Part shown: one piece after another, positions 8,095 through 49,830 of the stretch
Numbering within the stretch: position 1 is the first letter of the stretch
Layout of the letters: each line of letters starts with the position of its first letter
Assembly (NCBI RefSeq): GCF_913063425.1
Contig: NZ_CAJXYK010000036.1
Span: 1-63,084, forward strand
Origin: an uncultured Thiohalocapsa sp.
GTDB lineage: Bacteria > Pseudomonadota > Gammaproteobacteria > Chromatiales > Chromatiaceae
DNA length: 63,084 bases
Direction: 5' to 3'
The notes under the pieces: generated by a model
Database searches by the model: none
Told to the model about the DNA's origin: nothing
The model's input: only the letters and a program-made list of their open reading frames with translations
Made by a program: the position numbers and the translations under genes

Positions 8095-9922
<1,828 letters not shown>

Positions 9923-11010: not shown

Positions 11011-11169
11011 GGGCGGCGCGCTCGGTGGTGCTCTGGTCCGCATTCCAGGCGAGCCGGGCCGGTGACGCGAAGGCGGGCGCAGGCAGCGAAGTTGGCGCCG
11101 GCTATGCCATAATGCGCGGCTGTATTCGCCGCTGAGCCGCGCGGACCGCGCTGCAACCGAGGACTAAAC

Positions 11170-11499
11170 ATGAGCTTTTTCATCTCCGACGCCATGGCCC
11201 AGGCCGAGGGCGCGCCCGCCGGTGACCCGCTGCTCGGGCTGCTCTTCCCGGTCGGTCTCATCGTCATCCTCTACTTCCTCATGATTCGCCCGCAGATCAA
11301 GCGCCAGAAGGAGCACAAGAAGCTGGTGGAGGGCCTGAGCAAGGGCGACGAGGTGGTCACCATGGGCGGTGTGGCCGGGCGCATCGTGGAGCTCGGCGAG
11401 AACTTCGCCCAGCTGGAGGTGGCCGACAACGTGCGCATCAAGATCCGCCGCTCCGCCGTCGAAGTGCTGCTGCCCAAGGGCCAGCTGAAAGAGCTTTGA
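11170..11499 (+). CDS. yajC: Sec translocase accessory subunit YajC
   Basis: Small inner-membrane protein of the SecDF-YajC complex that assists Sec-dependent export. The 109-aa product has a short N-terminus rich in Ala/Gly, one transmembrane helix (LLGLLFPVGLIVILYFLMI), the conserved RPQIKRQKEHKKLVEGLSKGD block, and the SH3-like C-terminal part GDEVVTMGGVAGRI. It heads the yajC-secD-secF cluster; secD follows after 180 bp. Confidence 0.95.
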   Translation: MSFFISDAMAQAEGAPAGDPLLGLLFPVGLIVILYFLMIRPQIKRQKEHKKLVEGLSKGDEVVTMGGVAGRIVELGENFAQLEVADNVRIKIRRSAVEVLLPKGQLKEL

Positions 11500-11679
11500 G
11501 CGCTGCCGCCGCGGCGGCACGCCTGACCTGAATCCAGCCCGGCCCGCGCGGTACGAGCCCGCCGTGGGCCGACGCCTGCCGCGCGCGCCGGTTGCTGCCC
11601 GTGCCTGCGGCCTGCGCCCGGTCGGCGTCGGCGCTGCGGAGCGCGCAGCCCCCAAGGAAGCCTCCGGGAGACCCCCATT

Positions 11680-13536
<1,857 letters not shown>

Positions 13537-13563
13537 CCCGCGCCAATCGACGGAGACTTGACC

Positions 13564-14520: not shown

Positions 14521-14530
14521 GATGAAGCAA

Positions 14531-14601
14531 GGGCTGAGGGCTGAGGGCTGTGGGCTGAGGTTCCGGCCGCCCCCTGTCCTCAGCCCTCAGCCCTCAGCCC
14601 G
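14531..14601. repeat. Heptamer repeat forming a 23-bp inverted repeat
   Basis: Left arm 14538-14560 and right arm 14579-14601 are made of GGGCTGA units and their complement, giving a 23-bp stem with one mismatch and a 17-nt loop. It lies between secF and the start codon of the NRDE gene (14609), so it would fold in the leader of that mRNA. The same heptamer occurs at about 23994-24011 and 45034-45066. Confidence 0.75.
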
Positions 14602-14608
14602 CTCCGCT

Positions 14609-15418
14609 ATGTGCACCCTCATCATTCTTCGGCGCCCCGGTCATGACTGGCCGCTGCTGCTGGCGGCCAATCGCGACGAGCTGCGCTCGCGCCCCTCGCA
14701 GCCGCCCGGCCGGCACTGGCCAGACCGCCCGGATGTCGTCGCCGGGCTGGACGAGCTGGCGGAGGGCAGCTGGCTCGGCGTCAACGACCACGGCATGGTC
14801 GCCGCGGTGCTGAACCGCACCGGTACACTGGGGCCTCAGCCCGGCCGGCGCAGTCGCGGTGAGCTGGTGCTGGAGGCGCTCGACCACGCCGAGGCCAAGG
14901 CAGCCGCCGGCGCGCTTGCGGACCTCCACCCCGAGGCCTACCGGCCCTTCAATCTGCTGGTGGCCGACCCCAGGGACTGTTACTGGCTGCGCCACGGCGG
15001 CGACGGCGAGATCCGCGTGCACCCGGTGCCGCCCGGGCTGCACATGCTGACGGCCGGTGACCTGGACGACACCGCCGAGCCGCGCATCGCGCGCTTCCTG
15101 CCGGCCTTCCGCGCCGCAGCCGAGCCGGCACCTGCCGCCGACGGCGGTGACTGGCGGGCCTGGGTGGAGCTGCTGGGGGAGCGCGCATCGGACGACGCGC
15201 CGCGGGAGGCGCGCTTCGCGGCCATGAGCCTGGACGGCATCCGGCTTGACGGTGGCGACTATGGCACCGTCGCCAGCAGCCTGGTGGCGGTGCCGGCGTA
15301 CCCCGGCTTCGATGCGCTGCCGGTGCTCCTGCACGCCGACGGCCCGCCGGAGCGCACGCCCTTCCGGCAGGTGGCCATGACCACACCCGACGTGACCAAG
15401 GCTGGAGACGACCCATGA
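14609..15418 (+). CDS. NRDE/TANGO2 family protein
   Basis: A 269-aa member of the NRDE (TANGO2) family, structurally Ntn-hydrolase-like, whose eukaryotic members have been linked to heme or lipid handling; bacterial function is not settled. The start is chosen at MCTLIILRRPGHDWPLLLAANRDE because family members begin Met-Cys, the Cys2 being the candidate N-terminal nucleophile, and NRDE itself is the naming motif (here ANRDE). WLGVNDHGMVAAVLNR and PFNLLVAD are further conserved blocks. The stop overlaps the start of the next gene in ATGA, so the two are translationally coupled. Confidence 0.88.
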   Translation: MCTLIILRRPGHDWPLLLAANRDELRSRPSQPPGRHWPDRPDVVAGLDELAEGSWLGVNDHGMVAAVLNRTGTLGPQPGRRSRGELVLEALDHAEAKAAAGALADLHPEAYRPFNLLVADPRDCYWLRHGGDGEIRVHPVPPGLHMLTAGDLDDTAEPRIARFLPAFRAAAEPAPAADGGDWRAWVELLGERASDDAPREARFAAMSLDGIRLDGGDYGTVASSLVAVPAYPGFDALPVLLHADGPPERTPFRQVAMTTPDVTKAGDDP

Positions 15419-16029
15419 GCCGCCTCGACCCCGACCGCCCCATTCCGCCCCTGCCGACCCTGCGTGAGCTCGCCCCCGGCAGCTTCGTCTTCGCGCGCCC
15501 GGGCGCCCTGCCGCCCAGCTTTTGTGATGAGGTGGTGAGTCGCTTCGAGGCCAACCCGGAGCACCAGTACGCCGGGCGTGTGGGCCAGCTGCGCGAGGAG
15601 ATGGCCTCCATCAAGCAGACCACGGATCTTGTGGTCAGCAACAAGGACGCCTGGACGGACGTGGACCAGATGTTCTTCCGCTCGCTCGCCGCCGCCATGC
15701 AGGAGTTTCGCGAGACCTATCCCTACTTCAAGGGGCCCTTTAAGGACCTGGGCTATCAGGTGCAGCGCTACCTGCCCGGGCAGTTCTACCACTGGCACGT
15801 GGACGGCGGCAGCCACGAGCTGAGCCAGCGCCAGCTGGTGGCCATCTGGTACCTGAACGACGTGCCCGGCCCCGGCGGTGAGACCCAGTTCCTGTACCAG
15901 GACCTGAGCGTACGCCCCGAGCGCGGCAAGCTGATCCTCTTCCCGCCCTTCTGGACCCATGAGCACCGGGCGAACCGACTGGAGGCGGGTGTGAAGTACA
16001 TTGCGACGACTTGGATCGTGTTTGCGTAG
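15415..16029 (+). CDS. 2-oxoglutarate/Fe(II)-dependent oxygenase, prolyl-4-hydroxylase type
   Basis: A 204-aa double-stranded beta-helix oxygenase. The iron triad is visible as HWHVD (His128 and Asp130) and a distal His182 in FWTHEH; a basic residue for 2-oxoglutarate follows in the GVKYIATTW strand. Members of this group hydroxylate proline or other residues of proteins, but the substrate cannot be read from the sequence. The N-terminus is Pro-rich with no signal peptide. The ATGA overlap with the NRDE gene suggests a functional pair. Confidence 0.85.
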   Translation: MSRLDPDRPIPPLPTLRELAPGSFVFARPGALPPSFCDEVVSRFEANPEHQYAGRVGQLREEMASIKQTTDLVVSNKDAWTDVDQMFFRSLAAAMQEFRETYPYFKGPFKDLGYQVQRYLPGQFYHWHVDGGSHELSQRQLVAIWYLNDVPGPGGETQFLYQDLSVRPERGKLILFPPFWTHEHRANRLEAGVKYIATTWIVFA

Positions 16030-16083
16030 GAAGTACTCAACCGATCCACCGACGCTGCCTGCTGAGCTCGAACCCGTCATCCC

Positions 16084-16494
16084 ATGACCCGAGACGCCGC
16101 CCGCCAACCCCACCTCCTCGCCATCATCGAGCTCGGCGGGTATCCGAACTTCACGCCGCTGTACAAGCGTCTCGGATTCGATGCCGAGCTGGTGAGCTCC
16201 CAGCGCAAGGCGCAGGCGGCCCTGAAGCGGCGGATGCCGCAGGTGATCGTCGCCGAGTACAACTTCCAGTCCGACTTCCGGGACCGCACCAGCAACCTGG
16301 AGACCCTGATGGCGCGGCTTCAGAAGCACCCCGAGGTGCGCGTCATCTGCATCTACCAACCCGAGTACCAGCACAAGCTCGATGCCCTGCGCGAGCGTTT
16401 CCCGGTGTTCGCGGCGCTGCCGCTGCCGGTCACCGAAGCCGCCATGGAGGACGCGCTGCGGCGGGCACTGGCGGCGGCGAACGACGCGGGCTGA
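16084..16494 (+). CDS. Conserved protein with receiver-like fold pattern
   Basis: A 136-aa soluble protein with alternating strands and helices: LLAIIELGGYPNF, MPQVIVAEYNFQSDFRDRTSNLETLMARL, VRVICIYQPEYQHKL, and FPVFAALPLPVTEAAMEDALRRAL. The order resembles a CheY-like receiver, but the phospho-acceptor Asp position is not convincing, so it is probably a pseudo-receiver. I do not recognise a named family. It lies 54 nt after the oxygenase gene on the same strand. Confidence 0.6.
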   Translation: MTRDAARQPHLLAIIELGGYPNFTPLYKRLGFDAELVSSQRKAQAALKRRMPQVIVAEYNFQSDFRDRTSNLETLMARLQKHPEVRVICIYQPEYQHKLDALRERFPVFAALPLPVTEAAMEDALRRALAAANDAG

Positions 16495-16620
16495 TGCGCC
16501 GAGGTGATCGGCGCCCATGTCACCCAGGTGACGTGGGCTTCTCAAGCGCGCCCGGGCCATCTCCGGGATAGTTCAGTACACCGTCCCCACAAATACCTTG
16601 GGGTCAGGTGCCGGCTTGGC

Positions 16621-18465
16621 TCAGGGGTTGTGTCTGTGCGAGTGCCCGTGCCCGTCTGGCTTGGCATCGCCGGTGGAATACGCTGCCTTCCTGCGCTCCG
16701 GGCTTTGGTGCCGGCCACCGTGCAGCCGCCACAGCAGATACGCCAGGAGGGCGTAGAGCGGTGCCTTGCTGGCGTCGTCGAAGATCAGGCTTATGACGGC
16801 CATCAAGCCCGCGACGGCGGCGAGGGCCAGGTCAACGTGGCGCAGTCGCAGCCGCAGCCGGGTTGGGGCCTCGGCCGGGCGGCTGGGCACCTTGCGCATG
16901 GTTGCCTGCGGCCGGTGTGTCCGCCTGGCGCTGATGCTGCGCGGGCGCCGCCGGCCGGCGGGCGGCCTGACCAAGCGGCGCCCGTCCACCACCGCCACCA
17001 ACAGCAGGTACAGGGCGAGCAGCAGGCTGCCGGCGACGACGGGATGCCAGCCGAGCGTACCCGTCAGCCAGCGACCGGCCACAAAAAGGCCCAGGCCCAA
17101 GCCGATGTAGCCGAAGACCCGCAGCACCTCGTAGGGCACCGGATAGAAGCGCCGACCCAGGCCGTAGGAGAGCATCACCATGGCGCTGTAGCAGATGAGA
17201 TGCGCCCAGGCGGCGCCCTCGTAGCCGTATTCCGGCACCAGCAGCCACAGCGACACCACCGTGATGGCTGCTCCCGTGAGCGCCACCCAGGCCCCCATGA
17301 GCGTGCGGTCCGTGAGCTTGTACCAGATGGACAGGTTCACGTAGACGCCGAGCAGCAGGTTCGCCACCAGCAGCACCGGCACCACGTGCAGCCCCTCCCG
17401 GTAGGCTGCGCCGATGAAATACTGGAACAGGTCGATGTAGAGCGTGACCAAGAGAAAAATGAACACGCAGAAGATCACGAACCAGGTCAGCACCAGGGCG
17501 TAGATCTCCTTCGCGTCCCGCTGCTTGGCATAGCTGAAGAAAAAGGGCTCGCCGGCGTATCGGAAGGCCTGGATGAACAGGGTCATCAGGATGGAGAGCT
17601 TGTAGACGGCGCTGTAGATGCCGAGCTGCGCCATGCTGGTGGCTTCGTCGTAGGGCAGCAGGTACTTGAGCGCGGCGCGGTCGAGCATCTCGTTGACGAT
17701 GCCCGCCATGCCGATGACCACCATGGGCAGCGAGTACCGCAGCATGCGCTTGAAGAGCGCCCCGTCGAAGCCCGTCAGCGCGCCGGCGAACTGCGGCGTC
17801 AGCAGCAGCAGCTTGAGCCCGCTCGCCGCCAGGTTAGAGATAAACACATAGCCGACGCCGATCTCCGGCACCCAGAGGCGGCCGAGGACGGAGCCCGGGT
17901 CCGCCTCGTACGCCTGCCGGCAGACCACGATGAAGAAGACATTGAGCCCGATGTTGGCGCCGATCTCGATGAGCTTGATGGTGGCGAACCGCAGCGCCTG
18001 GTCCTCCGCCCGCAACCGCGCGAAGGCTGCGTTGCCCACCGAGTCCATCGCCAGGATCGCCGCCATCCACCAGATGTACTCCGGATGATCTCCGTGGCGC
18101 AGCAGATCGGCTACCGGCTGCTGGAAGACCACGGCGAGCATAAGAAAGCCCCCGTTGGCGACAATCAGGAACCTGAGCACCGTCGCCAGCACGGTCCCCG
18201 GGTCGTCCTCGCCGGCGGAGCGAAAGCGGAAGTACCCCGTCTCCATGCCGAAGGTCATGAGCACCGCGAGGAAGCCCATGTAGGCATAGAACTCCGCCAC
18301 CACGCCGTAGTCCGCCGGCACGAAGGTGTAGGTGTAGAGCGGCACCAGCAGGTAGTTCAGGAACCTGCCGAGGATGCTGCTCAGGCCGTAGACGGCGGTC
18401 TGGGAGGCGAGGCGCTTGAGGGGGTTCAAGGGGCTTTGATGGGCTCGGTTGGCGCTCGGGTGCAC
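16621..18465 (-). CDS. Polysaccharide flippase (Wzx/MATE-like) with C-terminal extension
   Basis: Inner-membrane lipid-linked oligosaccharide flippase of the MOP superfamily. The N-terminal signature (LASQTAVYGLSSILGRFLNYLLVPLYTYTF, broken here over positions 19-48) and about 14 hydrophobic segments support this. Typical members are near 480-500 aa; this one has 614. The extra 115 or so residues contain a basic linker, two more hydrophobic segments (LALAAVAGLMAVISLIF and APLYALLAYLLWRL) and a His-rich tail (GHGHSHRHNP). An internal ATG at the start of the extension (MRKVPSRP) could mark a fused small gene. The gene has no polysaccharide neighbours here; the EPS locus is 35 kb away. Confidence 0.85.
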   Translation of the reverse strand: MHPSANRAHQSPLNPLKRLASQTAVYGLSSILGRFLNYLLVPLYTYTFVPADYGVVAEFYAYMGFLAVLMTFGMETGYFRFRSAGEDDPGTVLATVLRFLIVANGGFLMLAVVFQQPVADLLRHGDHPEYIWWMAAILAMDSVGNAAFARLRAEDQALRFATIKLIEIGANIGLNVFFIVVCRQAYEADPGSVLGRLWVPEIGVGYVFISNLAASGLKLLLLTPQFAGALTGFDGALFKRMLRYSLPMVVIGMAGIVNEMLDRAALKYLLPYDEATSMAQLGIYSAVYKLSILMTLFIQAFRYAGEPFFFSYAKQRDAKEIYALVLTWFVIFCVFIFLLVTLYIDLFQYFIGAAYREGLHVVPVLLVANLLLGVYVNLSIWYKLTDRTLMGAWVALTGAAITVVSLWLLVPEYGYEGAAWAHLICYSAMVMLSYGLGRRFYPVPYEVLRVFGYIGLGLGLFVAGRWLTGTLGWHPVVAGSLLLALYLLLVAVVDGRRLVRPPAGRRRPRSISARRTHRPQATMRKVPSRPAEAPTRLRLRLRHVDLALAAVAGLMAVISLIFDDASKAPLYALLAYLLWRLHGGRHQSPERRKAAYSTGDAKPDGHGHSHRHNP

Positions 18466-33058: not shown

Positions 33059-33134
33059 GCGCCCTTAGCTCAGTTGGTAGAGCATCTGACTTTTAATCAG
33101 GCGGTCGTTGGTTCGAGTCCAACAGGGCGCACCA
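33059..33134 (+). tRNA. tRNA-Lys (anticodon TTT)
   Basis: A 76-nt tRNA with acceptor GCGCCCT pairing with AGGGCGC, D-arm GCTCAGTTGGTAGAGC, anticodon stem TCTGA/TCAGG (one G-T pair) with loop CTTTTAA, T-arm GTTGGTTCGAGTCCAAC and encoded CCA. Its 3' 48 nt (33087-33134) serve as attachment core for the element to the right; integration regenerates a complete tRNA. Confidence 0.97.
33087..33134 (+). repeat. attL core (3' end of tRNA-Lys)
   Basis: 48-bp direct repeat from the anticodon stem to CCA of tRNA-Lys. It matches 41989-42036 except for C at 33102 against T at 42004. The next bases differ on the two sides, so the repeat ends at CCA. Confidence 0.95.
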
Positions 33135-33141
33135 TAAAATC

Positions 33142-33174
33142 AAGGGCTTAGGGGGATTTCTCCTAAGCCCTTTT
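33142..33174 (+). terminator. Intrinsic terminator supplied by the element after tRNA-Lys
   Basis: AAGGGCTTAGG (33142-33152) pairs with CCTAAGCCCTT (33162-33172), extended inward by two pairs, followed by TTTT. It replaces the native terminator of the tRNA gene, which integration moved to 42046-42077. Confidence 0.85.
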
Positions 33175-33178
33175 CATT

Positions 33179-33199
33179 TGAGCAACCAATGAGCAACCA
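33179..33199 (+). promoter_or_regulatory. Two presumed integrase arm-type sites (left)
   Basis: Two direct copies of TGAGCAACCA at 33179-33188 and 33190-33199, 11 bp apart. Three more copies in the same orientation lie at 41836-41870, inside the other end. Short direct repeats flanking the core on both sides are the expected form of integrase arm sites; the role is inferred from position. Confidence 0.7.
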
Positions 33200-33291
33200 G
33201 CCGGGGCAAGATTCACCGGCGGGCGGTGCCGGGCGATGCTCGACGGGGTGTCGCTCAATGGCGCCGACGTGGTGCGGTCCGCCGGCCGGCA

Positions 33292-34048
33292 GCGCGGGCA
33301 GGGCCTCGGGCGCGGTGCCCTGGGGCGGGTCCGGGACCCGGCCGCCAGCTCGGGCAGGTCCTCGACCCGGTGGGCTCGATCCTGGGGCATGCCGCCAGCG
33401 CCGGCAGCTCGGGTAGGTCCTCGGGCCGGTCGCGACCCTGAAGGCGAAGTGGACCCGGCCGGGAGCTTCAGCAGGGCCTCGGGGCGGTCGCGACCCTGAG
33501 GGCGAAGCCGGACCCGGCCGGGAGCTCGGGCAGGGCCTCGGGCGCGGCGCCCTGGGGCGGGTCCGGGACCCGGCCGCCAGCTCGGGCAGGTCCTAGACCC
33601 GGTGGGCTCGATCCTGGGGCATGCCGCCAGCGCCGGCAGCTCAGGCAGGTCCTCGGGCCGGTCGCGACCCTGAGGGCGAAGCCGGACCCGGCCGGCAGGG
33701 TCTCGGGGCGGTGCCCTGGAGCGGAGTCGGAACCCGGCCGGCAGCTCGGGCAGGGCCTCGGGCGCGGTGCCCTGGGGCGGGTCCGGGACCCCGGCCGCCA
33801 GGTCCTCGACCCGGTGGGACTCAACACTAAGGCGTCAGGCGGTGTCGGCAAGGTCTCGACTCGGTGGGCTCGATCATGGAAGCGGCGCCAACGCCGGCAG
33901 CTTCAGCAGGGCCTCGACCCGGCGGGCCTTCATGCCGGGGCGTCACCATCGCCGACGGGTCCGCGACCTCGGTCCTCGATGCTCGGGCGTCACCTGCTCC
34001 GGCAGGGCCTAGACCTCGGGGTCTTCACCCTGGGGCCGTTCCGTTGAC
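33292..34048. repeat. Degenerate minisatellite with higher-order organisation
   Basis: About 14 tandem units, most of 56-59 bp with some shortened to 45-50 bp, each starting AGCTCGGGCAGGKCCTCG or a variant. Four unit types (A 56, B 59, C 58, D 59 bp) follow each other and the A-B-C block then repeats at about 233 bp. The unit lengths are not multiples of three, so no frame stays open across the array. Read on the minus strand, short phrases such as ALPELPAG and LPAGSGFALRV resemble leucine-rich-repeat units of 20 residues, so this may be a decayed LRR gene. It fills the element between attL and the iterons. Confidence 0.85.
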
Positions 34049-34130
34049 GGGATGCAGGGCGGCAGGCAACGCCAATGCCGCGGTTTCGCCGGCAGGCGCG
34101 GGCTTGCTTGCGCGCGTCGCCGGAACCAGC

Positions 34131-34521
34131 GTAACAGGGCGTAACTCGGCGTAACGTTGTCCCCATTGTCCCCAGTTTGTCCCCATGCACCGGGGACGGT
34201 TGGTCGTTTGCAAGGTTCTGTTTCGTCGTCCTTTTCGGAATTGTCCCCGGTGTCCCCAGTGTCCCCGCTCGATTTGCAGGAGTCAGGGAAAACAGCAGGG
34301 GCGGAAGCTGGGGAAGTGCGTACACGGGGGGTATAGCTTTGTGTCTTTCGGGAGAACACACAGAGGGGCGATGGGGACTTGGGGACGTGCCCGGCGTTTT
34401 CCTCAACTCATGCAAAATAGCTGGGGACAGCGGGGACACTGGGGACAATCCCTGAAAGTGTAATTGAAACAGCGTGTTAAGGTGTCCCCGCGCGTCCCCA
34501 AAAGGTGGGGACACTGGGGAC
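34131..34521. other. Candidate replication origin: mirrored GTCCCC/GGGGAC iterons
   Basis: Three 10-bp repeats starting GTAAC (34131, 34141, 34151) are followed by 16 copies of a hexamer. GTCCCC occurs at 34159, 34168, 34179, 34243, 34252, 34261, 34483 and 34494; the complement GGGGAC at 34192, 34373, 34381, 34423, 34432, 34441, 34507 and 34516. Spacing within groups is mostly 9 bp, with 8 or 11 bp in places. The intervals between groups are relatively AT-rich. This is the form of a Rep/helicase-bound origin and lies at the end of the element's replication operon. It could also be an operator array for the AlpA-like or TerS-like protein. Confidence 0.75.
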
Positions 34522-34545
34522 AAAACCGCGATGCGTTGCGGTGGG

Positions 34546-34959
34546 CTACGGCTCGACCGTCGAAGGCGGGGCCGCGGGGCCTCGGGGGGCGCAGTCGGCG
34601 GGGGTGTCGGGTGCCGTGGCCGCGGCTTCCTGAAGATGAATCGCGGCCGCGAATCTCAGCAGGGCATCGGCCGCCGCGATCTTCACGGCCGGGGCTGCTG
34701 TTGGCTCGGTCAGTGCCGCTTGCAAGGCGTCAAGGGCCTTCGGCGTCAGGGCCTCGACGCGCGCGCGGGTGTCGCCGGTCTCGGCAAGTGCCACCAGGCG
34801 CCGCAGTTCTTCATCGAAGCCCGGAACGCGCCGCCAGTGCGAAACGGTCTCGGGTCTGACGCCAACCGCGCGGGCCGCGTCGGCACCAGTCGCGCCGCGG
34901 GCCAAGTGCCGCGCTGCTTCAAGCTGCTGCGGTGTCAGCGGGCGATTAGGGCGGCTCAA
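34546..34959 (-). CDS. Terminase-small-subunit-like helix-turn-helix protein
   Basis: A 137-aa protein with an N-terminal HTH (LTPQQLEAARHLARGATGADAARAVGVRPETVSHWRRVPGF, residues 8-48), then a helical dimerisation region (LVALAETGDTRARVEALTPKALDALQAAL) and a Pro/Ala-rich tail. This HTH-plus-helix plan is that of phBC6A51-type phage proteins and of some terminase small subunits, which bind pac/cos DNA. In satellites such a protein redirects packaging to the satellite genome. It is last in the leftward gene series and its stop lies 25 bp from the iteron array. It may equally be an iteron-binding regulator. Confidence 0.65.
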   Translation of the reverse strand: MSRPNRPLTPQQLEAARHLARGATGADAARAVGVRPETVSHWRRVPGFDEELRRLVALAETGDTRARVEALTPKALDALQAALTEPTAAPAVKIAAADALLRFAAAIHLQEAAATAPDTPADCAPRGPAAPPSTVEP

Positions 34960-35196
34960 GGGTCAATTCTCCGCATTGCCGCGAGCAAAGTTCACCGATG
35001 GTTGACTATGACGGGGCGACGGAACCTAGAGCAACTTCGCGGCTTCGAGTATCGCAACGCGAATCGGCGGAAAGGACCCGCACCGATTGCAGGCAATTCG
35101 ACGCAAGGTCAACCGAAGCTCAACCCCACAGGTCAACCACGCGCAAACCGAGTGCCGCCGCGCCCAACCGCGCGCCGTGGGTTCAGTTTGCTGGAT

Positions 35197-35601
35197 TCAA
35201 AACGGGGGCACGGGATCGTCGAAGGGCGCCGCGTCGCTGTTGCTGGGCTTCGGCGGGCCGGTCGTGCCCTGTCGGTTGCTGCGGGCGCTTCCGGGGCGAA
35301 CGGTGCGGGCCGATACCAGGGCATCGGCAATCAGTTGCCAGGACTCCCGCGCGGTGCCGTCTTCGGCTGTCCATTTGGACAGTTCCAGCCGGCCGCTTGC
35401 CGACAGGGTTTCGCCTTTGGCGTGCTTCGCCAGTTGGTCGGCCAGCTTGCCGAAGGCGATAACACGAACCCATAGGGTCGATTCTTGGTCGCGCTGGCTC
35501 ACGTCAACCGCGACACTGGCCGCCGTCATGGGCTTCCCGGTGCGGGTGTTGATCGGCTGCGGGTCCTTACCGAGCCGGCCGTGAATGCTGGCTTGCATCA
35601 T
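35197..35601 (-). CDS. ssb: Single-stranded DNA-binding protein
   Basis: A 134-aa OB-fold protein: MMQASIHGRLGKDPQPINTR at the N-terminus, VAVDVSQRDQESTLWVRVIAFGKLADQLAKH and LSASGRLELSKWTAEDG as the core strands. The C-terminal tip DAAPFDDPVPPF keeps the acidic-proline-phenylalanine signature (compare DDDIPF) that docks partner proteins such as primase. The start overlaps the stop of the preceding gene (ATGATG/TGA). An element-coded SSB supports autonomous replication. Confidence 0.85.
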   Translation of the reverse strand: MMQASIHGRLGKDPQPINTRTGKPMTAASVAVDVSQRDQESTLWVRVIAFGKLADQLAKHAKGETLSASGRLELSKWTAEDGTARESWQLIADALVSARTVRPGSARSNRQGTTGPPKPSNSDAAPFDDPVPPF

Positions 35602-36062
35602 CGCGAAAGGTCCTCGGGGTTGTCGCGGGTGGCTTGGCCGCGCCGGGCGCGAATGCGGGCGCCGTCGGGACCGCGGTCCAGGGCGCGGGCAAGGGCCGCC
35701 AGCACGCGGGGTTGATGGCACACATCCGGCCAGTCGGGGCCGGCCGCGCGCTTCAGGTCCTCGACGGTAAAGCCGAGCCAGGCCGCGGGCGGATTGTCCG
35801 GGTCCGGGTGCAGGACTTCGGCCGCGCCGTCGGCATCGGCTCGGGTCAGGCCGCCGTCGTGTTGCATGATGGCCGCGCGTTCGTCGCGGGCTTCCTGCCA
35901 GGGCGCGGGCGCCGCCGGGGCCTCGGGTATGGGTGCAGCCGAGCCGGCTTGCTGGGGGCCGGCAGGGGGCGCCGGGGGCGATGCGGGCGCCGGGTCCTCG
36001 GGTTGGCGCCGCCGCCGTTGGGCGATGCGTCGCGCGATGCGGTCAAAGTCCATCGTCGCCAC
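35598..36062 (-). CDS. Element protein of unknown function
   Basis: A 154-aa soluble protein: a basic N-terminus (MDFDRIARRIAQRRRRQPEDP), a Pro/Ala-rich linker, and a C-terminal part with WLGFTVEDLKRAAGPDWPDVCHQPRVLAALARAL. No family is recognised. It overlaps the DUF927 gene upstream by 20 nt and the ssb gene downstream by 4 nt, so it is part of the replication operon and probably works with it. The true start may be the second Met at 36053. Confidence 0.6.
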   Translation of the reverse strand: MATMDFDRIARRIAQRRRRQPEDPAPASPPAPPAGPQQAGSAAPIPEAPAAPAPWQEARDERAAIMQHDGGLTRADADGAAEVLHPDPDNPPAAWLGFTVEDLKRAAGPDWPDVCHQPRVLAALARALDRGPDGARIRARRGQATRDNPEDLSR

Positions 36063-37956
36063 CTCCGCCTAGGTCGCTCCCGAACACATAGACCCGTTGG
36101 GGGTTTGCGAAGCCCGGGAGCCTGACCTTCTGGGTCGGCCGGCCGTCGTCGCCGGGGCGCAGCAGGCCGCGCCGCACAAGCACGCGCGCGGCATCGCGGT
36201 AGTCGTGGCCTTCGCACAGCTCGCGTTTGAAGGTCTCACCGAACACGTAGTACACCAGGCCGCCGGCTTCGTCGCCGGGGTCGTGCTTGAAGCCGGCTTG
36301 CCGGGGGACCTCGGGGGCGTGGTCGTCTAGGGCGCGGTCCTTCCATCGCAGGCGGTTGCTGTGCTGCTCGAACCAATGCCGAACCTGGGACAGCAGGTCG
36401 CGCTCCTCCGCCGGGATCGGGCCGCCGCGGGCCTTCAGCCAGTCACCGAAGCAACGCAAGGCCGCCTCATAGGCCGCGTCCTCAGCCCATCCGGTCAAGC
36501 CGGCATGGGTCGCCAGCTCGCCGGCAACTCCAACCAGGCCGAAGCGGGCCGCTACGCGCCGGACTTGACCCGGTGGGCTCTTGATACCGGACAGGGCATC
36601 GGACACGAACAGGTCTCGCAGCTCTTTGACGCGGGCCGGCAGGCGGGCGCGTTGGGCTTGTACGGCTTCTATCCAAGCGATGAAGGGGGCGCCGTAGTAG
36701 GTCGCGGCCGCCTCGGTCAGCCGGACCGCGAAGGCCGCGCCGTCGGGTTCGCCGTGTAGGTCCTCGAAGCAGCCATAACCCGCGCCGGCGTCGGCAGGGA
36801 TTTCGGCCATGCGGACTTCCTGACCCGCGCGGGCGCGCTTGTTCGCGCTGGCCATGTGTTCGGCAAGGCCGATCTCGCCGCTGCTCAGGAACAGCACGCG
36901 CCAATGCTTGACCGGGCGCGCGTCGCCGGTGCGTGCCGCGCGGGCCTTTCCGCTGCCGTTGGCGAGCATGTAACCCGCTTCGCCGGCCGCCTTCGGGTCC
37001 ATCTGGCCGAACTCGTCTAGGATCAGGGGCGCGTCGTTCGATAGCTCGGCGGTTGCCTCAAGGGCGTTATCGGTGGTCCGCCAGCGTTGCAGGTAATCGG
37101 GGGCGCCGCAGACACTCGCCGCGACCCGCTGACACGTGGTCTTGCCGCTGCTGCTGGCGTCAGTGCTGGAACCCTTCAAGTGGAAGCCGCCGGACTCGCC
37201 GCCGATCAGGTGCAGCAGGGGCGCCGCGAAGGCGACGGACACACAGAACAACAGCCGGCTGTTGCCGATGCACGGCAAGCCGACATGCCGCCGCCAGTCC
37301 TCGACCGTGCCGCGAACCGCGAACGCGGGCGGTTCGGCCAGCTCGCCGGCCAGGATCACGGGCTCGGCTTCGTCGCCGATAACGCGGTCCGGCAAGACAA
37401 AGGCGCCGCCGTCGGTCCAGCCGGTTCGGGTGGTGGATCGGGCGCGGGCCTCGGGCCGCCAGCGTTGCAGCAGCTCAAGGAAGGCGCGCCGCGCCTCGGG
37501 GTGCGTGCTGACCTCCAAGCCGAGCCGAGCCAGGCGCGCGCGTAACGCTTCACCGGACCCTTGCAGGTCGGCGGCAGGGATGGCCAAGCGCCGCGGGTTG
37601 CCGTCCGGGTCCTCGAACTCGACAAGCCGTCCGAAGTCGTCCCCGCGGGCGTCGCGGGTGAGGGCGATCACTCGCAGTGGGCTGCATATCCATACAGGCG
37701 GGGCGTCGTCGCCGCTTCGCCGCTTGGCGCCGGGCTTCGCGTAGTAGATGCCGCCGGGCCGGGCCTCGAACGGGAACGGCAAGCCGTCGGCATCGCCGGC
37801 AGGTGGGGCCGGGGCTTTGGTCGGCTTCGCGGGCGCGGGGGCCTCGATGGGCCGCCAGCGGGCCGCCGCCGCGAAGGTCGCCGCGGTCCAGCCGGCCGCC
37901 AGGGCGTCGGCGGCGTCATAGCCTTTCGGCAGTGGCGCCGGGGTCTGCTCAGGCAT
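36043..37956 (-). CDS. DUF927-domain helicase-like ATPase
   Basis: A 637-aa protein from the ATG at 37956. The DUF927 region begins near GGIYYAKPG and contains the P-loop STDASSSGKTT, a Walker B motif PLILDEFGQMD, and later RPVKHWRVLFLSSGEIGLAEHM. DUF927 proteins are found with primases on phages, satellites and plasmids and are taken to be replicative helicases. The C-terminal 150 residues (WFEQHSNRLRWKDRAL, YRDAARVLVRRGLLRPG) resemble the winged-helix end seen in such proteins. Its start overlaps the primase stop by 8 nt. A longer frame up to 38070 lies wholly over the primase gene and is rejected. Confidence 0.85.
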   Translation of the reverse strand: MPEQTPAPLPKGYDAADALAAGWTAATFAAAARWRPIEAPAPAKPTKAPAPPAGDADGLPFPFEARPGGIYYAKPGAKRRSGDDAPPVWICSPLRVIALTRDARGDDFGRLVEFEDPDGNPRRLAIPAADLQGSGEALRARLARLGLEVSTHPEARRAFLELLQRWRPEARARSTTRTGWTDGGAFVLPDRVIGDEAEPVILAGELAEPPAFAVRGTVEDWRRHVGLPCIGNSRLLFCVSVAFAAPLLHLIGGESGGFHLKGSSTDASSSGKTTCQRVAASVCGAPDYLQRWRTTDNALEATAELSNDAPLILDEFGQMDPKAAGEAGYMLANGSGKARAARTGDARPVKHWRVLFLSSGEIGLAEHMASANKRARAGQEVRMAEIPADAGAGYGCFEDLHGEPDGAAFAVRLTEAAATYYGAPFIAWIEAVQAQRARLPARVKELRDLFVSDALSGIKSPPGQVRRVAARFGLVGVAGELATHAGLTGWAEDAAYEAALRCFGDWLKARGGPIPAEERDLLSQVRHWFEQHSNRLRWKDRALDDHAPEVPRQAGFKHDPGDEAGGLVYYVFGETFKRELCEGHDYRDAARVLVRRGLLRPGDDGRPTQKVRLPGFANPQRVYVFGSDLGGGGDDGL

Positions 37957-38941
37957 CGCCGGGCGCCTCCGTGATGCTCGCCAGGTCCAGCACTTCCACC
38001 GATGCAGCGCCGGCCGCGGTCGCCAGGTCGGCGACGATGCGGGCATAGCGGGCGCCGGGGTCGTCGGCATCGGGCCAAATCTTGACGTGCCGGCCGGCCA
38101 GCGGGGACAGGTCCGCCAGGCCGGCCGCGTTGGCGCCGTTCATGGTCGCGCTCGTCACCATGTCCGGCAGCAGTTCGGCCGCGGCGTCGGCCGCCTTTTC
38201 GCCTTCGCAGACACAGACCGGGGCATCAGGCCGGGTCGCGAGGGCTTGCAGGCGGTACAGGGGCCGGGGCTTCGGCGGGGCTCGCCACTGCCAGCCGTCG
38301 GCCGCGGTCCATGTCTGCGGGCTGAACACCTTTCGGCCGCGGTCCGGGTCGAAGCGGTGGACATACGCGACGGGGTGTCCGTCGGCGTCGGTATAGGTCC
38401 AGGTCTGCGAGGGGGCGCCGTGCTTGGGATGCTCGGTCGGGCGCGTCGCCAGGGCATCGGCCGGGATCGGCGTCAGTGTCGCCGGCCGCGGGGGCTCGGG
38501 GTCAGACTTCGGCGGGCTGGACCTCGGGGGCGGGGCCGCTTGGGCGGTGCCGGGCTCAACGTGGTAGCGGTCGGCGAGGGCCGCGCAGGCGTCGTCGAAG
38601 CTCAAGCCGTCGGCCATCATCGCGAAGTCGATGATGCTTCCGCCGTTGGCGTCGCAGCCGAAGCAACGGAACGCGCCGGTCCGAAGGTTGACCCCAAAGC
38701 TCGGGGTCGGGTCCTCGTGGAAGGGGCAGCGGATGTTCTGGGACCATTGGTCGCGAACCGCCTTCAGGGTGGGCGCGCCCGGCAGCTCGCGCGTGTAGAA
38801 GGCCACCGGGGGAATGCTCGCCTTCAGGTGGTCCGCGCGGGGCAGGCGCCGCGGTTGCCGATCCTCGGGCCGGGCGCTATCGTCGGCGGTGTTCTGATCT
38901 TTGACCCGGCCGCCGCGCCGGGTCTTTTCTTTTGGGGGCAT
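37949..38941 (-). CDS. CHC2 zinc-finger and TOPRIM primase
   Basis: A 330-aa primase-like protein. The CHC2-type zinc ribbon (CPFHEDPTPSFGVN, then FRCFGCDANGGSIIDF) occupies residues 70-110, as in the N-terminal domain of DnaG. After a Pro-rich linker comes a TOPRIM module with CVCEGEKAADAAAELLPD (the catalytic Glu) and HVKIWPDADDPG (the DxD). No helicase motif is present; that part is the neighbouring DUF927 protein, so the primase-helicase found as one chain in P4-type satellites is split here. It starts 7 nt after the AlpA-like gene. Confidence 0.87.
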   Translation of the reverse strand: MPPKEKTRRGGRVKDQNTADDSARPEDRQPRRLPRADHLKASIPPVAFYTRELPGAPTLKAVRDQWSQNIRCPFHEDPTPSFGVNLRTGAFRCFGCDANGGSIIDFAMMADGLSFDDACAALADRYHVEPGTAQAAPPPRSSPPKSDPEPPRPATLTPIPADALATRPTEHPKHGAPSQTWTYTDADGHPVAYVHRFDPDRGRKVFSPQTWTAADGWQWRAPPKPRPLYRLQALATRPDAPVCVCEGEKAADAAAELLPDMVTSATMNGANAAGLADLSPLAGRHVKIWPDADDPGARYARIVADLATAAGAASVEVLDLASITEAPGDA

Positions 38942-38948
38942 GCGGGGC

Positions 38949-39188
38949 TCAGGCCGCCGCGGGGCCGGTGGTGTTGGAGCGGGTCTGTTCCTCGATCCAG
39001 GTTGCCAGGTCGTCGGGGTGGTAGCGGACCGCGGAACCGAGCTTGAGATACTTCGGGCCGCCGCCGCGCACGCGCCACATTTGCAGCGTGCGTGGGGAAA
39101 AGCTCAACAGCGCCGCGGCTGCCTTTTCATCAAGTAGGGCGCTCGTGAGGGCGCGGGGCGCGGGGTTGGTTTCGGGGCGCGTCGTCAT
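38949..39188 (-). CDS. AlpA/excisionase-like helix-turn-helix protein
   Basis: A 79-aa MerR-like winged-helix protein: LLDEKAAAALLSFSPRTLQMWRVRGGGPKYLKLGS (residues 19-53, quoted in part elsewhere) followed by VRYHPDDLATWIEEQTR. This is the standard AlpA/excisionase pattern. In P4-like elements AlpA activates the integrase, and in Gram-negative PICIs it is the master regulator located between int and the replication genes, exactly its place here. The ATG at 39188 is the family start. Confidence 0.85.
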   Translation of the reverse strand: MTTRPETNPAPRALTSALLDEKAAAALLSFSPRTLQMWRVRGGGPKYLKLGSAVRYHPDDLATWIEEQTRSNTTGPAAA

Positions 39189-39280
39189 TCGTCGTTGGCC
39201 TATGTTGGGTTGCGATGTGCGGGCATCGTCACCCAAGGCAGGCCGCGCGCGCTGGAACAACCGCGGGGCGTTGTGGGGTC

Positions 39281-40096
39281 TCAGTTGTTCCGGTCTTGCC
39301 GCGCGCGGGTCTCTGCAACTGCTTTGCGGGTGACGGGGAAGCCAAGCGCCGCGGTCAGCAGGCGGGCGGCGTCCTCGGCACCGATGCTCAGGGCGGGGCC
39401 TAGCAGGCTGTATTGCAGGCGGGCTAAGTGCCGGTCGAAGTGCCGAACCCAAGGGGCAACGCGGGCCGCTTCGCGGTCGCTGGCGTGTTCGCCGCCGGGG
39501 GCGTTGCAGGTGGGTTCATGCTCGGTAAAGGCGTCGGCGAGGGTCTGCACCAGGTGCAACGGGTCCGGCAGGGCCTCGACGTTGCAACCGGGTGCGTTGC
39601 CGGTGGTCAGGTACGGGGCGCATCGCTCGGCGAACCGATGCGGGTGCAGGGTGAGGGGCGCCGCTTCGGTCAATAGGGCCTCGGTCAGCAGCGACGCATC
39701 GGGGGCGCTGATTCGGTGGCGTTCGGCGGTTGCCAGATAGGCCGCCAGCTTGTCGGCAAGGGCGTCGGCAAGGTCGGCAATCTCAGGGGCCAATCGGCGG
39801 CAGTCTTGCAGCGCCGCGCGGGCGTCCCGGTCCATGGAATCGGGCAGGGTCCAGAGGGCGTCAAAGATCAGCCGCCAGTCCGTCCAGCAGCGCCAATCTT
39901 TCGCCAGTCGCCGCCAAGTGCGGGCAATCTCGGGGGCGCCGGCATGGTCGCGGGGACAATCGGGGGAAATGCCGAGCAACCGGGGCGCGGCTGCCTTCAT
40001 CGCGGGGCTGTCGAAATGCGGGCGGTCTCGCAGCTCAAGCCAGCACTCCCAAACAGGCGCCGGGATGAAATCCGGCCGGGCGGGGGCGTCATGCAT
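39281..40096 (-). CDS. Element protein of unknown function
   Basis: A 271-aa soluble, helix-rich protein (FIPAPVWECWLELRDRPHF at the N-terminus, several Trp residues in TWRRLAKDWRCWTDWRLIFDALW). Seven cysteines are scattered without a clear metal motif. No family is recognised. It lies between the integrase and the AlpA-like gene, a slot often used by accessory or anti-phage genes in satellites, but nothing in the sequence supports a defence role directly. Confidence 0.65.
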   Translation of the reverse strand: MHDAPARPDFIPAPVWECWLELRDRPHFDSPAMKAAAPRLLGISPDCPRDHAGAPEIARTWRRLAKDWRCWTDWRLIFDALWTLPDSMDRDARAALQDCRRLAPEIADLADALADKLAAYLATAERHRISAPDASLLTEALLTEAAPLTLHPHRFAERCAPYLTTGNAPGCNVEALPDPLHLVQTLADAFTEHEPTCNAPGGEHASDREAARVAPWVRHFDRHLARLQYSLLGPALSIGAEDAARLLTAALGFPVTRKAVAETRARQDRNN

Positions 40097-40222
40097 GTTC
40101 GCGCACCTTCAACGCGCGAAGCCTTCAAGGGGGGAACCGAGCCGGGGGCGGTGAAGGTGCCGCCCGTTCGGGGATCAGCCTAGGCTCGGTCTGCGCAGTG
40201 TAGCAGTCGCGGGCCGGGCCGA

Positions 40223-41821
40223 TCAGCCGGCCGCGGTACGGGTGGACAGGTCCGGGGCTTCGTCGTCGTGGGCGTAGCGCCGGCAGGCTTCGGCGAGGGC
40301 GCCGCGGTTCTTCTTGAAGTACGGGGACCGCTGGGCAATGCACAGGCCGCCGGGGGCGTTGCGGTGGTCCTCCGCCCAAAAGGTGCAGGTGCCGCAACGG
40401 TTGACGGGCGCCGGCAGGTGGGCAACGTCCGCCGCGGGTGCCAAGCCGGCGGAGCCTAGGATGCGGGCGCCGTGCTGTTCCAGGGCCGCCCGTACCGTGT
40501 CTTCACCGAAGCGGGCGTATACCTGGGTTGTGCTGGCGTTGCTGTGATTCAGAACCCGCCCGATCAGGTGCAGGCTGTTGCCGGCTTGGGCGAGCCAGCT
40601 TCCGACCGTGCGCCGCAGGTCGTGCAAGCGCACGTCGTCGATTGCCGGGGGCAGGTCTACACCTTCGGCCGCGGCTGCTTCGCGAATGTCGGCAAGGCTC
40701 GGGGCCGGGGTCCAATCCTTCGCCGCGTGCTTGGACTTCGCCGCCGCGCGGGCCGCGGTCAAGCGGTCGATCAGGGCCGCGACCTCGGGCACGTCTCGCC
40801 ATCGGGCCAAGGTCGCCGCGGTGCGGACCCGGTTCCAGGGCTTGGAGATGTTGACCAAGTGGGCCGGGGCCTTCGCCTTCTCCACCGCGGTAGCGCCGCG
40901 CGGGCCGTGACCCGGCAGGATGTACGGGTTGCCGGGTTGCCGGGGCAGCTCCCGCAGCAACGCCAGCGCCGGACCGCTCAAGGGGATGTAGTGGGTCCGG
41001 CCGGCTTTGGTGTCGGCAAGCCGCAGGGTGCCGCGGGCCTCGTCAACGTCTTCCCATCGGGCTTGCAGCAGCTCGGACTTTCGCGCGCCGGTCAGCAGGT
41101 AGAGCCACAGGCCGAAGCGGGCCGATTCGTTGGGCTCGGCATTGATGGCCGCTGCCAGGTGGGGCAGTTCCTCGGGCGTTATCCAGCGGTCGCGCTTCTG
41201 TTCCTTGAAGCGGTCAATGTCGCGGGCCGGGTTCACGTGGTCCTCGGGGACATAACCCCAGCGCCGGGCCAATTCGAACAGCTTGGACAGCAGGGCAAGA
41301 ACCCGGTTGGCTTCGTAGGGCTTGCCGGCTTTGCCGATCTTGGAGTGCAACGCGGCAACGTCCGCGCGCTTCACCGCCTTCGCCTTCAGGTTTCGCCAAC
41401 GGGGCAGGATGTAGGTTTCGAGCCGCCGCCGGTCGTCGGCGCCGCTTTTCTTCGTGCTGGCGTGCCGGTCCAGGTAGGCCGCGGCAAGGTCGGCCATGGT
41501 TTCGCCGCGGCGTTCCGCTTCCTTGGTCGCCGCGGGGTCTTGGCCGCGCGCGGCATCGCCTAGGGCCGCCTTCGCCGTCTTGCGGGCTTCGTCGGCGGTC
41601 ATGTCCTTGCCGAAGGTCCCAAGCGTGAAGAACCGGCGCCGGCCGTTGCTGCGGTAGCTCACAAGGAAAGACTTTCGGCCGCTGGGGAACACGCGCACGC
41701 CAAAGCCTTTCAACTGCGAATCCCAAACGTACCAAGCGCCGTTGTTCGTCCCTTGGTAGGTCAGGGCTTCAACGGCTCGCTTCGTCAACTTGACCGCGTT
41801 GGTAGGTGTTCCGGTGTCCAT
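40223..41821 (-). CDS. Tyrosine-type integrase with catalytic-domain insertion and Cys-rich tail
   Basis: A 532-aa P4-type integrase. An N-terminal arm-binding domain (DUF4102 type, KLTKRAVEALTYQG, FGVRVFPSGRKSF) precedes the core-binding domain and the catalytic domain with Arg247 (TGARKSELL), His400 and Arg403 (HDLRRT), His426 (LNHSN) and Tyr435 (VYARF). Two oddities: about 60 extra residues between 333 and 395, before HDLRRT, and a 60-residue tail with Cys476, Cys479, Cys494 and Cys513, suggesting a zinc knuckle. The start codon is 168 bp from attR, and three presumed arm sites lie between. Confidence 0.93.
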   Translation of the reverse strand: MDTGTPTNAVKLTKRAVEALTYQGTNNGAWYVWDSQLKGFGVRVFPSGRKSFLVSYRSNGRRRFFTLGTFGKDMTADEARKTAKAALGDAARGQDPAATKEAERRGETMADLAAAYLDRHASTKKSGADDRRRLETYILPRWRNLKAKAVKRADVAALHSKIGKAGKPYEANRVLALLSKLFELARRWGYVPEDHVNPARDIDRFKEQKRDRWITPEELPHLAAAINAEPNESARFGLWLYLLTGARKSELLQARWEDVDEARGTLRLADTKAGRTHYIPLSGPALALLRELPRQPGNPYILPGHGPRGATAVEKAKAPAHLVNISKPWNRVRTAATLARWRDVPEVAALIDRLTAARAAAKSKHAAKDWTPAPSLADIREAAAAEGVDLPPAIDDVRLHDLRRTVGSWLAQAGNSLHLIGRVLNHSNASTTQVYARFGEDTVRAALEQHGARILGSAGLAPAADVAHLPAPVNRCGTCTFWAEDHRNAPGGLCIAQRSPYFKKNRGALAEACRRYAHDDEAPDLSTRTAAG

Positions 41822-41835
41822 CGTGGGGCCTCACT

Positions 41836-41870
41836 TGAGCAACCAGATTTGAGCAACCAATGAGCAACCA
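41836..41870 (+). promoter_or_regulatory. Three presumed integrase arm-type sites (right)
   Basis: Direct copies of TGAGCAACCA at 41836, 41850 and 41861 in the int-attR gap, in the same orientation as the two copies near attL. They lie just upstream of the integrase start and could also let the integrase repress its own promoter. Confidence 0.7.
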
Positions 41871-41988
41871 CGACGAAGCGTAATGCAGCGTTGACGAACG
41901 GGCAAGGGCGTATGCGGGGCGAAACGTAAGGGTCTGTTTTAAAGTGAAAAACCGTAAGGCGTCGTTTTCCACCGTAAAGCCGGTTTCG

Positions 41989-42036
41989 TGACTTTTAATC
42001 AGGTGGTCGTTGGTTCGAGTCCAACAGGGCGCACCA
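41989..42036 (+). repeat. attR core
   Basis: 48-bp direct repeat of the 3' end of tRNA-Lys, differing from attL at 42004 (T for C). No 5' half of a tRNA precedes it, so it is an attachment site and not a second tRNA gene. Confidence 0.95.
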
Positions 42037-42077: not shown

Positions 42078-42660
42078 TGCCCGCTGGCCCGATTGGGTAA
42101 CGTCCTGGGTAACAACGGCGCTCGGTAGGCAACAGCAGGGCCGGGCGGGCATTCCCGAGCCGGCGCGAAGGTCCGGTGGAATCAGGCGGGCCGGCGGCTT
42201 GGAGTCAGGTGCACCAGCAGCCGGCGCCCCCTGGTGCCCAGTCCCCGATCCCCTCCACCACCTCCGCCAGCCGCCCGAGCAACGGCGCCCAGGCATAACC
42301 ACACGGCGCGGTGGGTCTATAGACGGAAAGCGGCCGAGGCAATTCTTGATCCCTCGAATCCCGTCGAGAGGTTGATCGGCGGGCGGGTTATTCCGCCGCG
42401 GCGCTGCTGCCCCTGGCGGTCGGTGCAGCGGCAGGGGGTCGGCGGCGAGCGCCCCAGCCCCACCAACGGCCCACAGCGGCGCTGGTCGGTGCCGGGGTGC
42501 GATGGCACAGGGTCAGGGCCGGCGGCGCGCTGGTGGATCGCCGGGCATGAAAAAGCCCGCGCGCGGCGGGCTCGGGGCGGGCCTGGTGGTGATCACCGGA
42601 CGCGGATGGTCCGGGTTTCGCCCTTCAGGCTCGGCGAGTCACCGACATATTGCTGTTGCC
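42078..42660. other. Gene-free region right of the element
   Basis: About 580 bp with no credible gene. It contains a minus-strand hairpin terminator at 42550-42572 (arms AGCCCGC and GCGGGCT with a run of five T on the minus strand), which would stop transcripts from the decayed genes to the right. Confidence 0.5.
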
Positions 42661-49363: not shown

Positions 49364-49468
49364 GATCCGCTCCGGTGTGCTTGCGATCTCTCCCTCGACA
49401 GCAGACCGGAGCCGGGGTTTCCATGCCCAAGGCAGCCCACGACAACCGGCCAGGCGCAGCGCCGGAGC

Positions 49469-49830
49469 GCCAAGCTCCACTCGCCTAAGCGCGGGACCGC
49501 CAAGCTCCACTCGCCCCAGCCCGGGACCGCCGAGCTCCACTCGGCCCAGCCTGGGGCCGCCGAGTTTCACTCGGCCCAGCCCCGGGGCCGCCGAGTTTCA
49601 CTCGGCCAAGCCCGGGACCGCCAAGCTCCACTCGGCCCAGCCCGGGGCCGCAAAGCTCCACTCGGCCCAGCCTGGGACCGCCGAGTTTCACTCGGCCAAG
49701 CCCCGGGGCCGCCGAGCTCCACTCGGCCCAGCCTGGGATCGCCAAGCTCCACTCGGCCCAGCCTGGGGCCGCCGAGTTTCACTCGGCCAAGCCCACCGCC
49801 GCCAAGCGTCACTCGCCCCAGCGCAGCCCC
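49469..49830. repeat. Twelve-copy 30-bp tandem repeat
   Basis: About twelve units of 30 bp (a few with one extra base), consensus GCCGAGCTCCACTCGGCCCAGCCTGGGGCC in two halves: a 17-bp hairpin GCCGAGCTCCACTCGGC (arms GCCGAG/CTCGGC) and a GC linker. CTCCA and TTTCA alternate in the loop. As 30 is a multiple of three, several frames stay open through it on both strands, but translation gives simple Pro/Ser/Arg repeats and is unlikely to be real. The array ends 70 bp before the patatin start codon. Confidence 0.88.

What the first reader, a model, noticed from the sequence alone, without database searches (positions are those of the whole stretch)
33087..42036. An 8.9-kb satellite-like element in tRNA-Lys with its own replication module and no structural genes
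The borders are exact: 48-bp repeats with one mismatch, a regenerated tRNA and a displaced host terminator. The gene set is integrase, unknown, AlpA-like regulator, split primase and helicase, unknown, SSB and a TerS-like protein, all leftward into an iteron array. Known Gram-negative PICIs carry int, alpA, a primase-replication gene and a packaging module. A version with separate CHC2/TOPRIM primase, DUF927 helicase and SSB in a phototrophic gammaproteobacterium may be a new satellite family.
Basis: partly seen in the sequence, partly recalled or inferred. Interest (0 to 1): 0.88.

Follow-up and report, generated by a model that had tools for sequence, protein, structure and literature searches.

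The report
Phage-satellite-like island in a tRNA gene
A purple sulfur bacterium carries a small DNA element, inserted cleanly in a tRNA gene, that looks able to cut itself out and copy itself but has no recognisable particle genes of its own; it most likely travels by borrowing a virus's shell, and related elements sit in several related bacteria.

Summary
An 8.95-kb element (33087-42036) sits in tRNA-Lys between 48-bp repeats with one mismatch. The tRNA half at attR matches congeners' tRNA-Lys; the half at attL is element-borne. Eight leftward genes: tyrosine integrase, unknown, AlpA-like, CHC2/Toprim primase, DUF927 helicase, unknown, SSB, and an HTH protein weakly TerS-like. No structural, relaxase or lysis family matched.

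I add: seven further tRNA-bounded elements from the same bacterial family (one supported only by a 23-bp repeat, one with a different replicase); doubled, element-specific arm motifs at both ends of all eight; and an iteron origin at 34158-34522 (12 GGGGACA in opposed sets around an AT-richer core).

It is not a new kind. The proven PICI EcCICFT073 has int-alpA-primase-small gene-SSB (SSB 44% identical). phiAH14b, whose DNA was packaged in another prophage's capsids, has separate primase and DUF927 helicase with similar iterons. Some Gram-negative PICIs are reported to encode TerS. Best reading: a PICI-like satellite lineage of Chromatiaceae, a variant of a known kind. Packaging, helper and induction are inferred; no TerL or portal Pfam match (three models) was found in the host genome.

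The parts
33059..33134 (+). tRNA-Lys(ttt), restored on integration; attL repeat is its last 48 bases (33087-33134), element-borne
   Evidence: position 44 C versus T in 9 of 9 other copies
33142..33174 (+). terminator-like hairpin with T run carried by the element after the tRNA
   Evidence: sequence, (read by eye)
33179..33199 (+). doubled arm-type motif TGAGCAACCA x2 (tRNA side)
   Evidence: only 5 copies in the whole window, 2 here and 3 at the other end; geometry and control
33282..33801 (.). GC-rich tandem array, about 59-nt unit, about 9 diverged copies (232-nt super-unit), no gene called; function unknown
34158..34522 (.). putative replication origin: 12 GGGGACA/TGTCCCC iterons, mostly 9-nt spaced; AT-richer core 34267-34422 (57% GC, element 69.6%)
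34546..34959 (-). HTH protein, 137 aa, TTG start; weakly terminase-small-subunit-like
   Evidence: inconclusive
35197..35601 (-). single-strand DNA-binding protein
   Evidence: PF00436 E 5e-15; 44% identical to EcCICFT073 SSB, E 2e-37
35598..36062 (-). unknown protein (up to 154 aa), conserved after the helicase in relatives
36043..37956 (-). DUF927 AAA+ initiator/helicase
   Evidence: PF06048 E 1e-79; PDB 8tch E 1.5e-14, 5dgk E 8e-7
37949..38941 (-). CHC2/Toprim primase; overlaps the helicase gene by 8 nt
   Evidence: PF01807 E 8e-16, Toprim E 0.085; PHROG primase/helicase 1.5e-15
38949..39188 (-). AlpA-like HTH_17 regulator/excisionase
   Evidence: PF12728 E 6e-9; PHROG_66 E 5e-8
39281..40096 (-). 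271-aa unknown, int-adjacent gene (position of PICMI iolg)
   Evidence: no Pfam, PHROG, NCBIfam or PADLOC match; homologues A1
40223..41821 (-). tyrosine integrase
   Evidence: PF13356, PF00589; 70% identical to L049's integrase, also in tRNA-Lys
41836..41870 (+). arm-type motif TGAGCAACCA x3 (int side)
41989..42036 (+). attR: original host tRNA-Lys 3' half
42095..42113 (+). doubled GGGTAAC outside attR: possible end of an older or neighbouring element
   Evidence: 83% match over about 131 bp beside tRNA-Thr in the same genome

Best explanation
A PICI-like phage satellite integrated in tRNA-Lys. Shown by sequence: the integrase exchanged the 3' half of tRNA-Lys; both ends carry the same doubled arm motif; primase, DUF927 helicase and SSB genes lie together with an iteron origin. 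Inferred: a helper phage triggers the AlpA-like protein; the integrase (perhaps with the 271-aa neighbour, by analogy with PICMI iolg, reported essential for excision) excises the circle and restores the tRNA; the DUF927 helicase binds the two iteron sets and opens the AT-richer core; primase and SSB support replication to concatemers; the DNA is packaged in helper particles, perhaps directed by the TerS-like HTH protein.
For: att and tRNA. Doubled arm motif at both ends of 8 of 8 elements with 8-mers (7 of 8 with 9-mers); 6 of 56 and 4 of 56 mismatched pairs, 15 of 400 and 1 of 400 random pairs. Origin: 12 iterons versus at most 6 of any 7-mer in 60 shuffles and at most 3 GGGGACA in 300; same place with altered iterons in L002 and L042. 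Integrase and replication modules assort separately: L049 integrase 70% but helicase 37%; L002 57% and 73%. Comparators: EcCICFT073 (phage-mobilised; PMC6092414 section 8) with the same order and 44% SSB; phiAH14b (packaged; PMC4936722 passages) with DUF927 helicase 33% identical and 9-nt iterons; E. coli element L137 with 45% helicase and two Psu-like genes.
Against: No helper found: PF03354, PF05876 and PF04860 gave 0 matches in the host genome (draft of 117 contigs; a virulent helper is possible). phrog_2, taken from memory as TerL, gave one weak match, not followed. No viral contig matched the helicase or the HTH protein. Against EcCICFT073 only SSB and a 37-residue integrase stretch matched; the window's primase, AlpA-like and 271-aa proteins matched neither comparator set by BLASTP at E 0.01. 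The TerS assignment is weak: better PHROG hits are to sigma factor and DNA-binding protein, no solved TerS by sequence, fold hits E 0.2 or worse in PDB. The origin is not immediately 3' of the helicase as in Gram-negative PICIs. Excision, replication and packaging untested.
Confidence: 0.75

Rival explanations
1. Integrative mobilizable island that replicates after excision and rides a conjugative helper through an oriT, as IncC-mobilised MGIVchHai6 islands do, which also carry an HTH gene and a DUF927 gene.
For: MGIVchHai6-like islands have a conserved HTH-DUF927-xis region (PMC7449626, passages). Plasmid records hold DUF927 relatives: 62 records.
Against: No relaxase or Mob family among the eight proteins; the gene order and iteron origin match satellites instead; oriT was not searched for specifically.
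Confidence: 0.1
2. Remnant of a temperate prophage that lost its structural genes.
For: Phage-type integrase, AlpA-like and SSB genes; L056 and L133 carry capsid genes; TerS-like protein.
Against: Compact, intact, same-direction genes with matching ends; the same small size (about 7.9-11.2 kb) and arm design recur in seven other elements; L002 has the same order.
Confidence: 0.07
3. Integrated plasmid-like replicon without any transfer helper, maintained by replication and site-specific integration only.
For: Complete replication module; some relatives are listed as small plasmids (L136 has DUF927 plus RepM; L138 is a 12-kb circle).
Against: Spread over several genera and tRNA sites implies transfer; phiAH14b and EcCICFT073 analogues are phage-packaged.
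Confidence: 0.06

Closest known systems
EcCICFT073, Gram-negative PICI (PMC6092414; CFT073 1377930-1388654, identified by its capsid c1499 and decoration c1500 genes)
   Same: int, alpA, primase, one small gene, SSB, regulator in this order; two iteron sets around an AT-rich region; SSB 44% identical
   Different: Its primase/rep is not a BLASTP match to the DUF927 helicase or the primase; origin directly after the primase; has capsid and decoration genes and cos sites, no TerS (paper); not in tRNA-Lys
phiAH14b of Pseudomonas sp. ANT_H14 (PMC4936722)
   Same: int, unknown, AlpA, separate Toprim primase and overlapping DUF927 helicase, 9-nt GGGGAACA-type iterons after the helicase; no structural genes
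   Different: 16.8 kb; helicase 33% identical; primase not matched by BLASTP; no TerS found by its authors; no SSB annotated; origin right after the helicase
PICMI115 of Vibrio (PMC10803314)
   Same: Small; int, int-adjacent unknown gene, alpA, primase; no capsid remodelling genes (sections 6 and 10)
   Different: Integrates at fis, which the authors call a hallmark; single primase; no SSB or TerS listed; sequence homology not tested here
P4-like satellites (PMC8628076)
   Same: int, AlpA, primase-helicase and iteron origin logic
   Different: No Psu, Sid, delta, epsilon or P4 alpha match; integrase lies at the end opposite the tRNA-side origin as in P4's circle, but core set differs

Membership tests
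Gram-negative PICI (PMC6092414, section 6) | int, alpA and pri/rep genes | tested here: met
   AlpA-like by HTH_17 and PHROG_66, not by a Pfam Phage_AlpA hit
Gram-negative PICI (PMC6092414, section 6) | unidirectional transcription from int | tested here: met
   eight of eight genes on the minus strand, int first
Gram-negative PICI (PMC6092414, section 6) | origin with two iteron sets flanking an AT-rich region | tested here: met
   core GC in the lowest 3% of the element (L042 control only lowest 14%)
Gram-negative PICI (PMC6092414, section 6) | origin immediately 3' of the replication initiator gene | tested here: not met
   three genes (about 1.5 kb) lie between helicase and iterons; hence 'PICI-like', not filed as a strict member
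Gram-negative PICI (PMC6092414, section 6) | phage-dependent induction, packaging and interference | not testable with these tools
   needs bench work; no helper identified
Gram-negative PICI (PMC6092414, section 6) | attachment site never used by prophages; PICI-exclusive genes | not tested
   other, unidentified sequences follow tRNA-Lys in congeners; not classified
P4-like satellite (PMC8628076) | Psu, Sid, delta, epsilon, alpha set | tested here: not met
   no such Pfam or PHROG match among the eight proteins
PICMI (PMC10803314) | integration at fis | tested here: not met
   tRNA-Lys site
Terminase small subunit (HTH protein 34546-34959) | TerS homology or fold | tested here: inconclusive
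   PHROG TerS E 1.3e-4 (window), 4e-6 (L002), 4e-5 (L042); 2e-7 and 3e-8 for distant homologues L117, L118; PDB fold hits not significant, BFVD best E 6e-4 unnamed
Mobilizable island (IncC type) | relaxase or MobI gene with oriT | tested here: inconclusive
   no such family among the eight proteins; oriT not searched

The most novel reading that the evidence does not exclude
A satellite lineage of purple sulfur bacteria in which the DUF927 replicon, SSB and a TerS-like packaging factor form one cassette, while integrase and its doubled arm code are swapped freely between tRNA targets, so that elements stack at the same tRNA gene; the TerS-like protein would redirect an unknown Chromatiaceae phage.
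Probability: 0.3. Interest if true: 0.6.

Novelty: new variant of a known kind. Interest (0 to 1): 0.45.

Why it matters
It extends PICI-like satellites, best known from Enterobacteriaceae, Pasteurellaceae and Vibrionaceae, to anoxygenic phototrophs whose phages are little known, and gives sequence handles (attP arms, iterons, TerS-like gene) with which to find the helper phage. Among the 15 papers listed of 89 that held at least three of my terms, none mentions Thiohalocapsa or Chromatiaceae; the other 74 were not seen.

Tried and rejected
New kind of satellite: rejected on EcCICFT073 and phiAH14b. The 59-nt array as a TerS-linked pac site: not supported. Arrays lie at the same place in L002, L003 and L039, but L042, which has the TerS-like gene, has none, and no homologue of that gene was found in L039. 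The array as the origin: rejected for the iteron cluster. TerS by neighbours: distant homologues in L117, L118, L120 and L122 have no TerL among the few neighbours scanned (most neighbours not scanned). Structure of the 271-aa protein: model too poor (mean pLDDT 46), not searched. Whole-element empty site: not found. Stacking: shown for L049 only (a third tRNA-Lys fragment and second integrase); none in the extensions of window, L052, L055, L002 or L042; the doubled motifs outside attR in five of six elements were read by eye without a control. L049 and L133 have no iteron cluster above shuffles.

Full report
Observation. The element lies exactly at 33087-42036. ARAGORN calls one tRNA-Lys at 33059-33134; its last 48 bases recur at 41989-42036 with one difference. 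That difference is informative: position 44 is C in the intact tRNA and T in the distal copy, and T in 9 of 9 other full-length tRNA-Lys compared; the rebuilt host tRNA equals that of three congeners. So the distal copy is the host's and the tRNA now in use carries an element-borne 3' half. In congeners a different sequence follows tRNA-Lys; a clean empty site was not found.

Host. The closest named relative of the helicase is Thiohalocapsa halophila DSM 6210 (L002, 73%). The genome search puts its contig-size match G081 in the window's genus; that G081 is this strain is inferred from the equal contig length, 82798. The element lies between queC and yjgA-queD-queE (gene names recalled from the sequences).

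Genes. Eight leftward genes were called and no others within the element. Pfam, PHROG and NCBIfam give integrase, HTH_17, CHC2/Toprim primase, DUF927 and SSB; the 271-aa and 154-aa proteins are unassigned, the last weakly TerS-like. PADLOC gave nothing for four of the eight plus six proteins of relatives. The helicase matches PDB entries 8tch ('Pathogenicity island protein', E 1.5e-14) and 5dgk ('Active helicase', E 8e-7); that these are SaPI Rep and SCCmec Cch is recalled.

Relatives. The helicase has a match in 40 of 194 genomes of the bacterial family, the 271-aa profile in 6 of 210 and the HTH profile in 21 of 210, own genome included. I inspected 22 loci with the eight proteins. L002 has all eight in the same order. 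Among 15 loci with a tRNA or tmRNA tested, the window included, a second tRNA 3' copy was found in 8: window, L002, L042, L049, L052, L055, L056 (46-57 bp) and L058 (23 bp, 91%). L056 lacks the DUF927 helicase and has an AAA_25 protein and a capsid protein. Sizes run from about 7.9 to 11.2 kb. Primase and helicase are one ORF in L042, L049, L052, L055 and two overlapping genes in the window and L002.

Attachment arms. TGAGCAACCA occurs five times in the 63-kb window, all inside the two ends of the element. Measured from the anticodon centre the copies lie at +87/+98 and -159/-145/-134. A doubled motif, different between elements but shared by the two ends of each, was found in 8 of 8 elements with 8-mers and 7 of 8 with 9-mers, against 6 and 4 of 56 mismatched pairs and 15 and 1 of 400 random pairs. 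Helper-embedded PICIs have a doubled motif 81 and 132 bp from the attP centre, which their authors did not see in other PICIs (PMC10111431, section 19).

Origin. Twelve GGGGACA lie in 34158-34522, in opposed sets around a 57%-GC core (element 69.6%). No shuffle reached this. L002 has TGTCCCACC and L042 TGTCCCCGG units at the same place; L003 and L040 also have strong clusters (15 and 13). Similar 9-nt units occur in EcCICFT073 (TGTCTACC), L137 (TGTTCCACC) and phiAH14b (TGTTCCCC). Against this, L049 and L133 show no cluster above shuffles, and L052, L055 and L138 have different units.

Comparison. EcCICFT073, moved by helper phages at up to about 1e6 transductants/ml (PMC6092414, section 8), has int-alpA-...-primase-85 aa-SSB-regulator; its SSB is 44% identical to the window's, but its primase, AlpA and small gene gave no match. 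phiAH14b has int-318 aa-AlpA-...-primase-DUF927 helicase; its DNA was packaged with virion proteins all assigned to phiAH14a (PMC4936722, passages). In E. coli, L137 joins int-212 aa-AlpA-primase/DUF927 with two Psu-like genes. The gene beside int recurs in unrelated forms: the 271-aa family (4-nt overlap with int in L056, L130, L044), PHROG_30524 in L137 and L138, and iolg in PICMIs, reported essential for excision (PMC10803314, section 10). The window's gene is 126 nt from int and L002 has an 80-aa ORF between, so overlap is not general.

Judgement. A PICI-like satellite is the best reading (0.75). The origin is not directly after the initiator gene, and induction and packaging are untested, so I do not file it as a strict Gram-negative PICI. 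No helper is known: TerL (PF03354, PF05876) and portal (PF04860) models gave no match in the host genome.

Noticed in passing
L128 (G000:C37), 9851-17872: Same genome: second related element or remnant at tRNA-Arg(acg), with doubled GAGTCACCA, an unk154-like protein, an 883-aa primase/helicase-like protein and a 58%-identical AlpA-like protein; no integrase match to the eight elements and no second tRNA copy beyond 16 bp.
   Followed up: partly
L056, 2243-11722: 9.5-kb element in tRNA-Leu with a Phage_capsid_4 protein, an AAA_25 replicase and a 271-aa-family gene overlapping int by 4 nt: looks like a capsid-carrying satellite.
   Followed up: partly
L049 plus L142 (G028:C1), locus coordinates 7500-27662: Two elements stacked at one tRNA-Lys: three 3' fragments and two integrases.
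   Followed up: partly
L117, L118, L120, L122: Lone chromosomal homologues of the HTH protein; L117 and L118 match TerS PHROG_2538 at 2e-7 and 3e-8.
   Followed up: partly
L002 13596-13956; L003 3686-4583; L039 12989-13608; window 33282-33801: Tandem arrays of about 30-122-nt units, unrelated by eye, between origin and tRNA end; function unknown.
   Followed up: partly
window 49453-49822: Another GC-rich tandem array (30/91/121-nt units) in host DNA.
   Followed up: no
L133 (PP003922.1): 10.2-kb 'Pseudomonas phage vB_Pae_U10' has int, AlpA-like, primase, DUF927 helicase and one capsid gene: may be a satellite rather than a phage.
   Followed up: no
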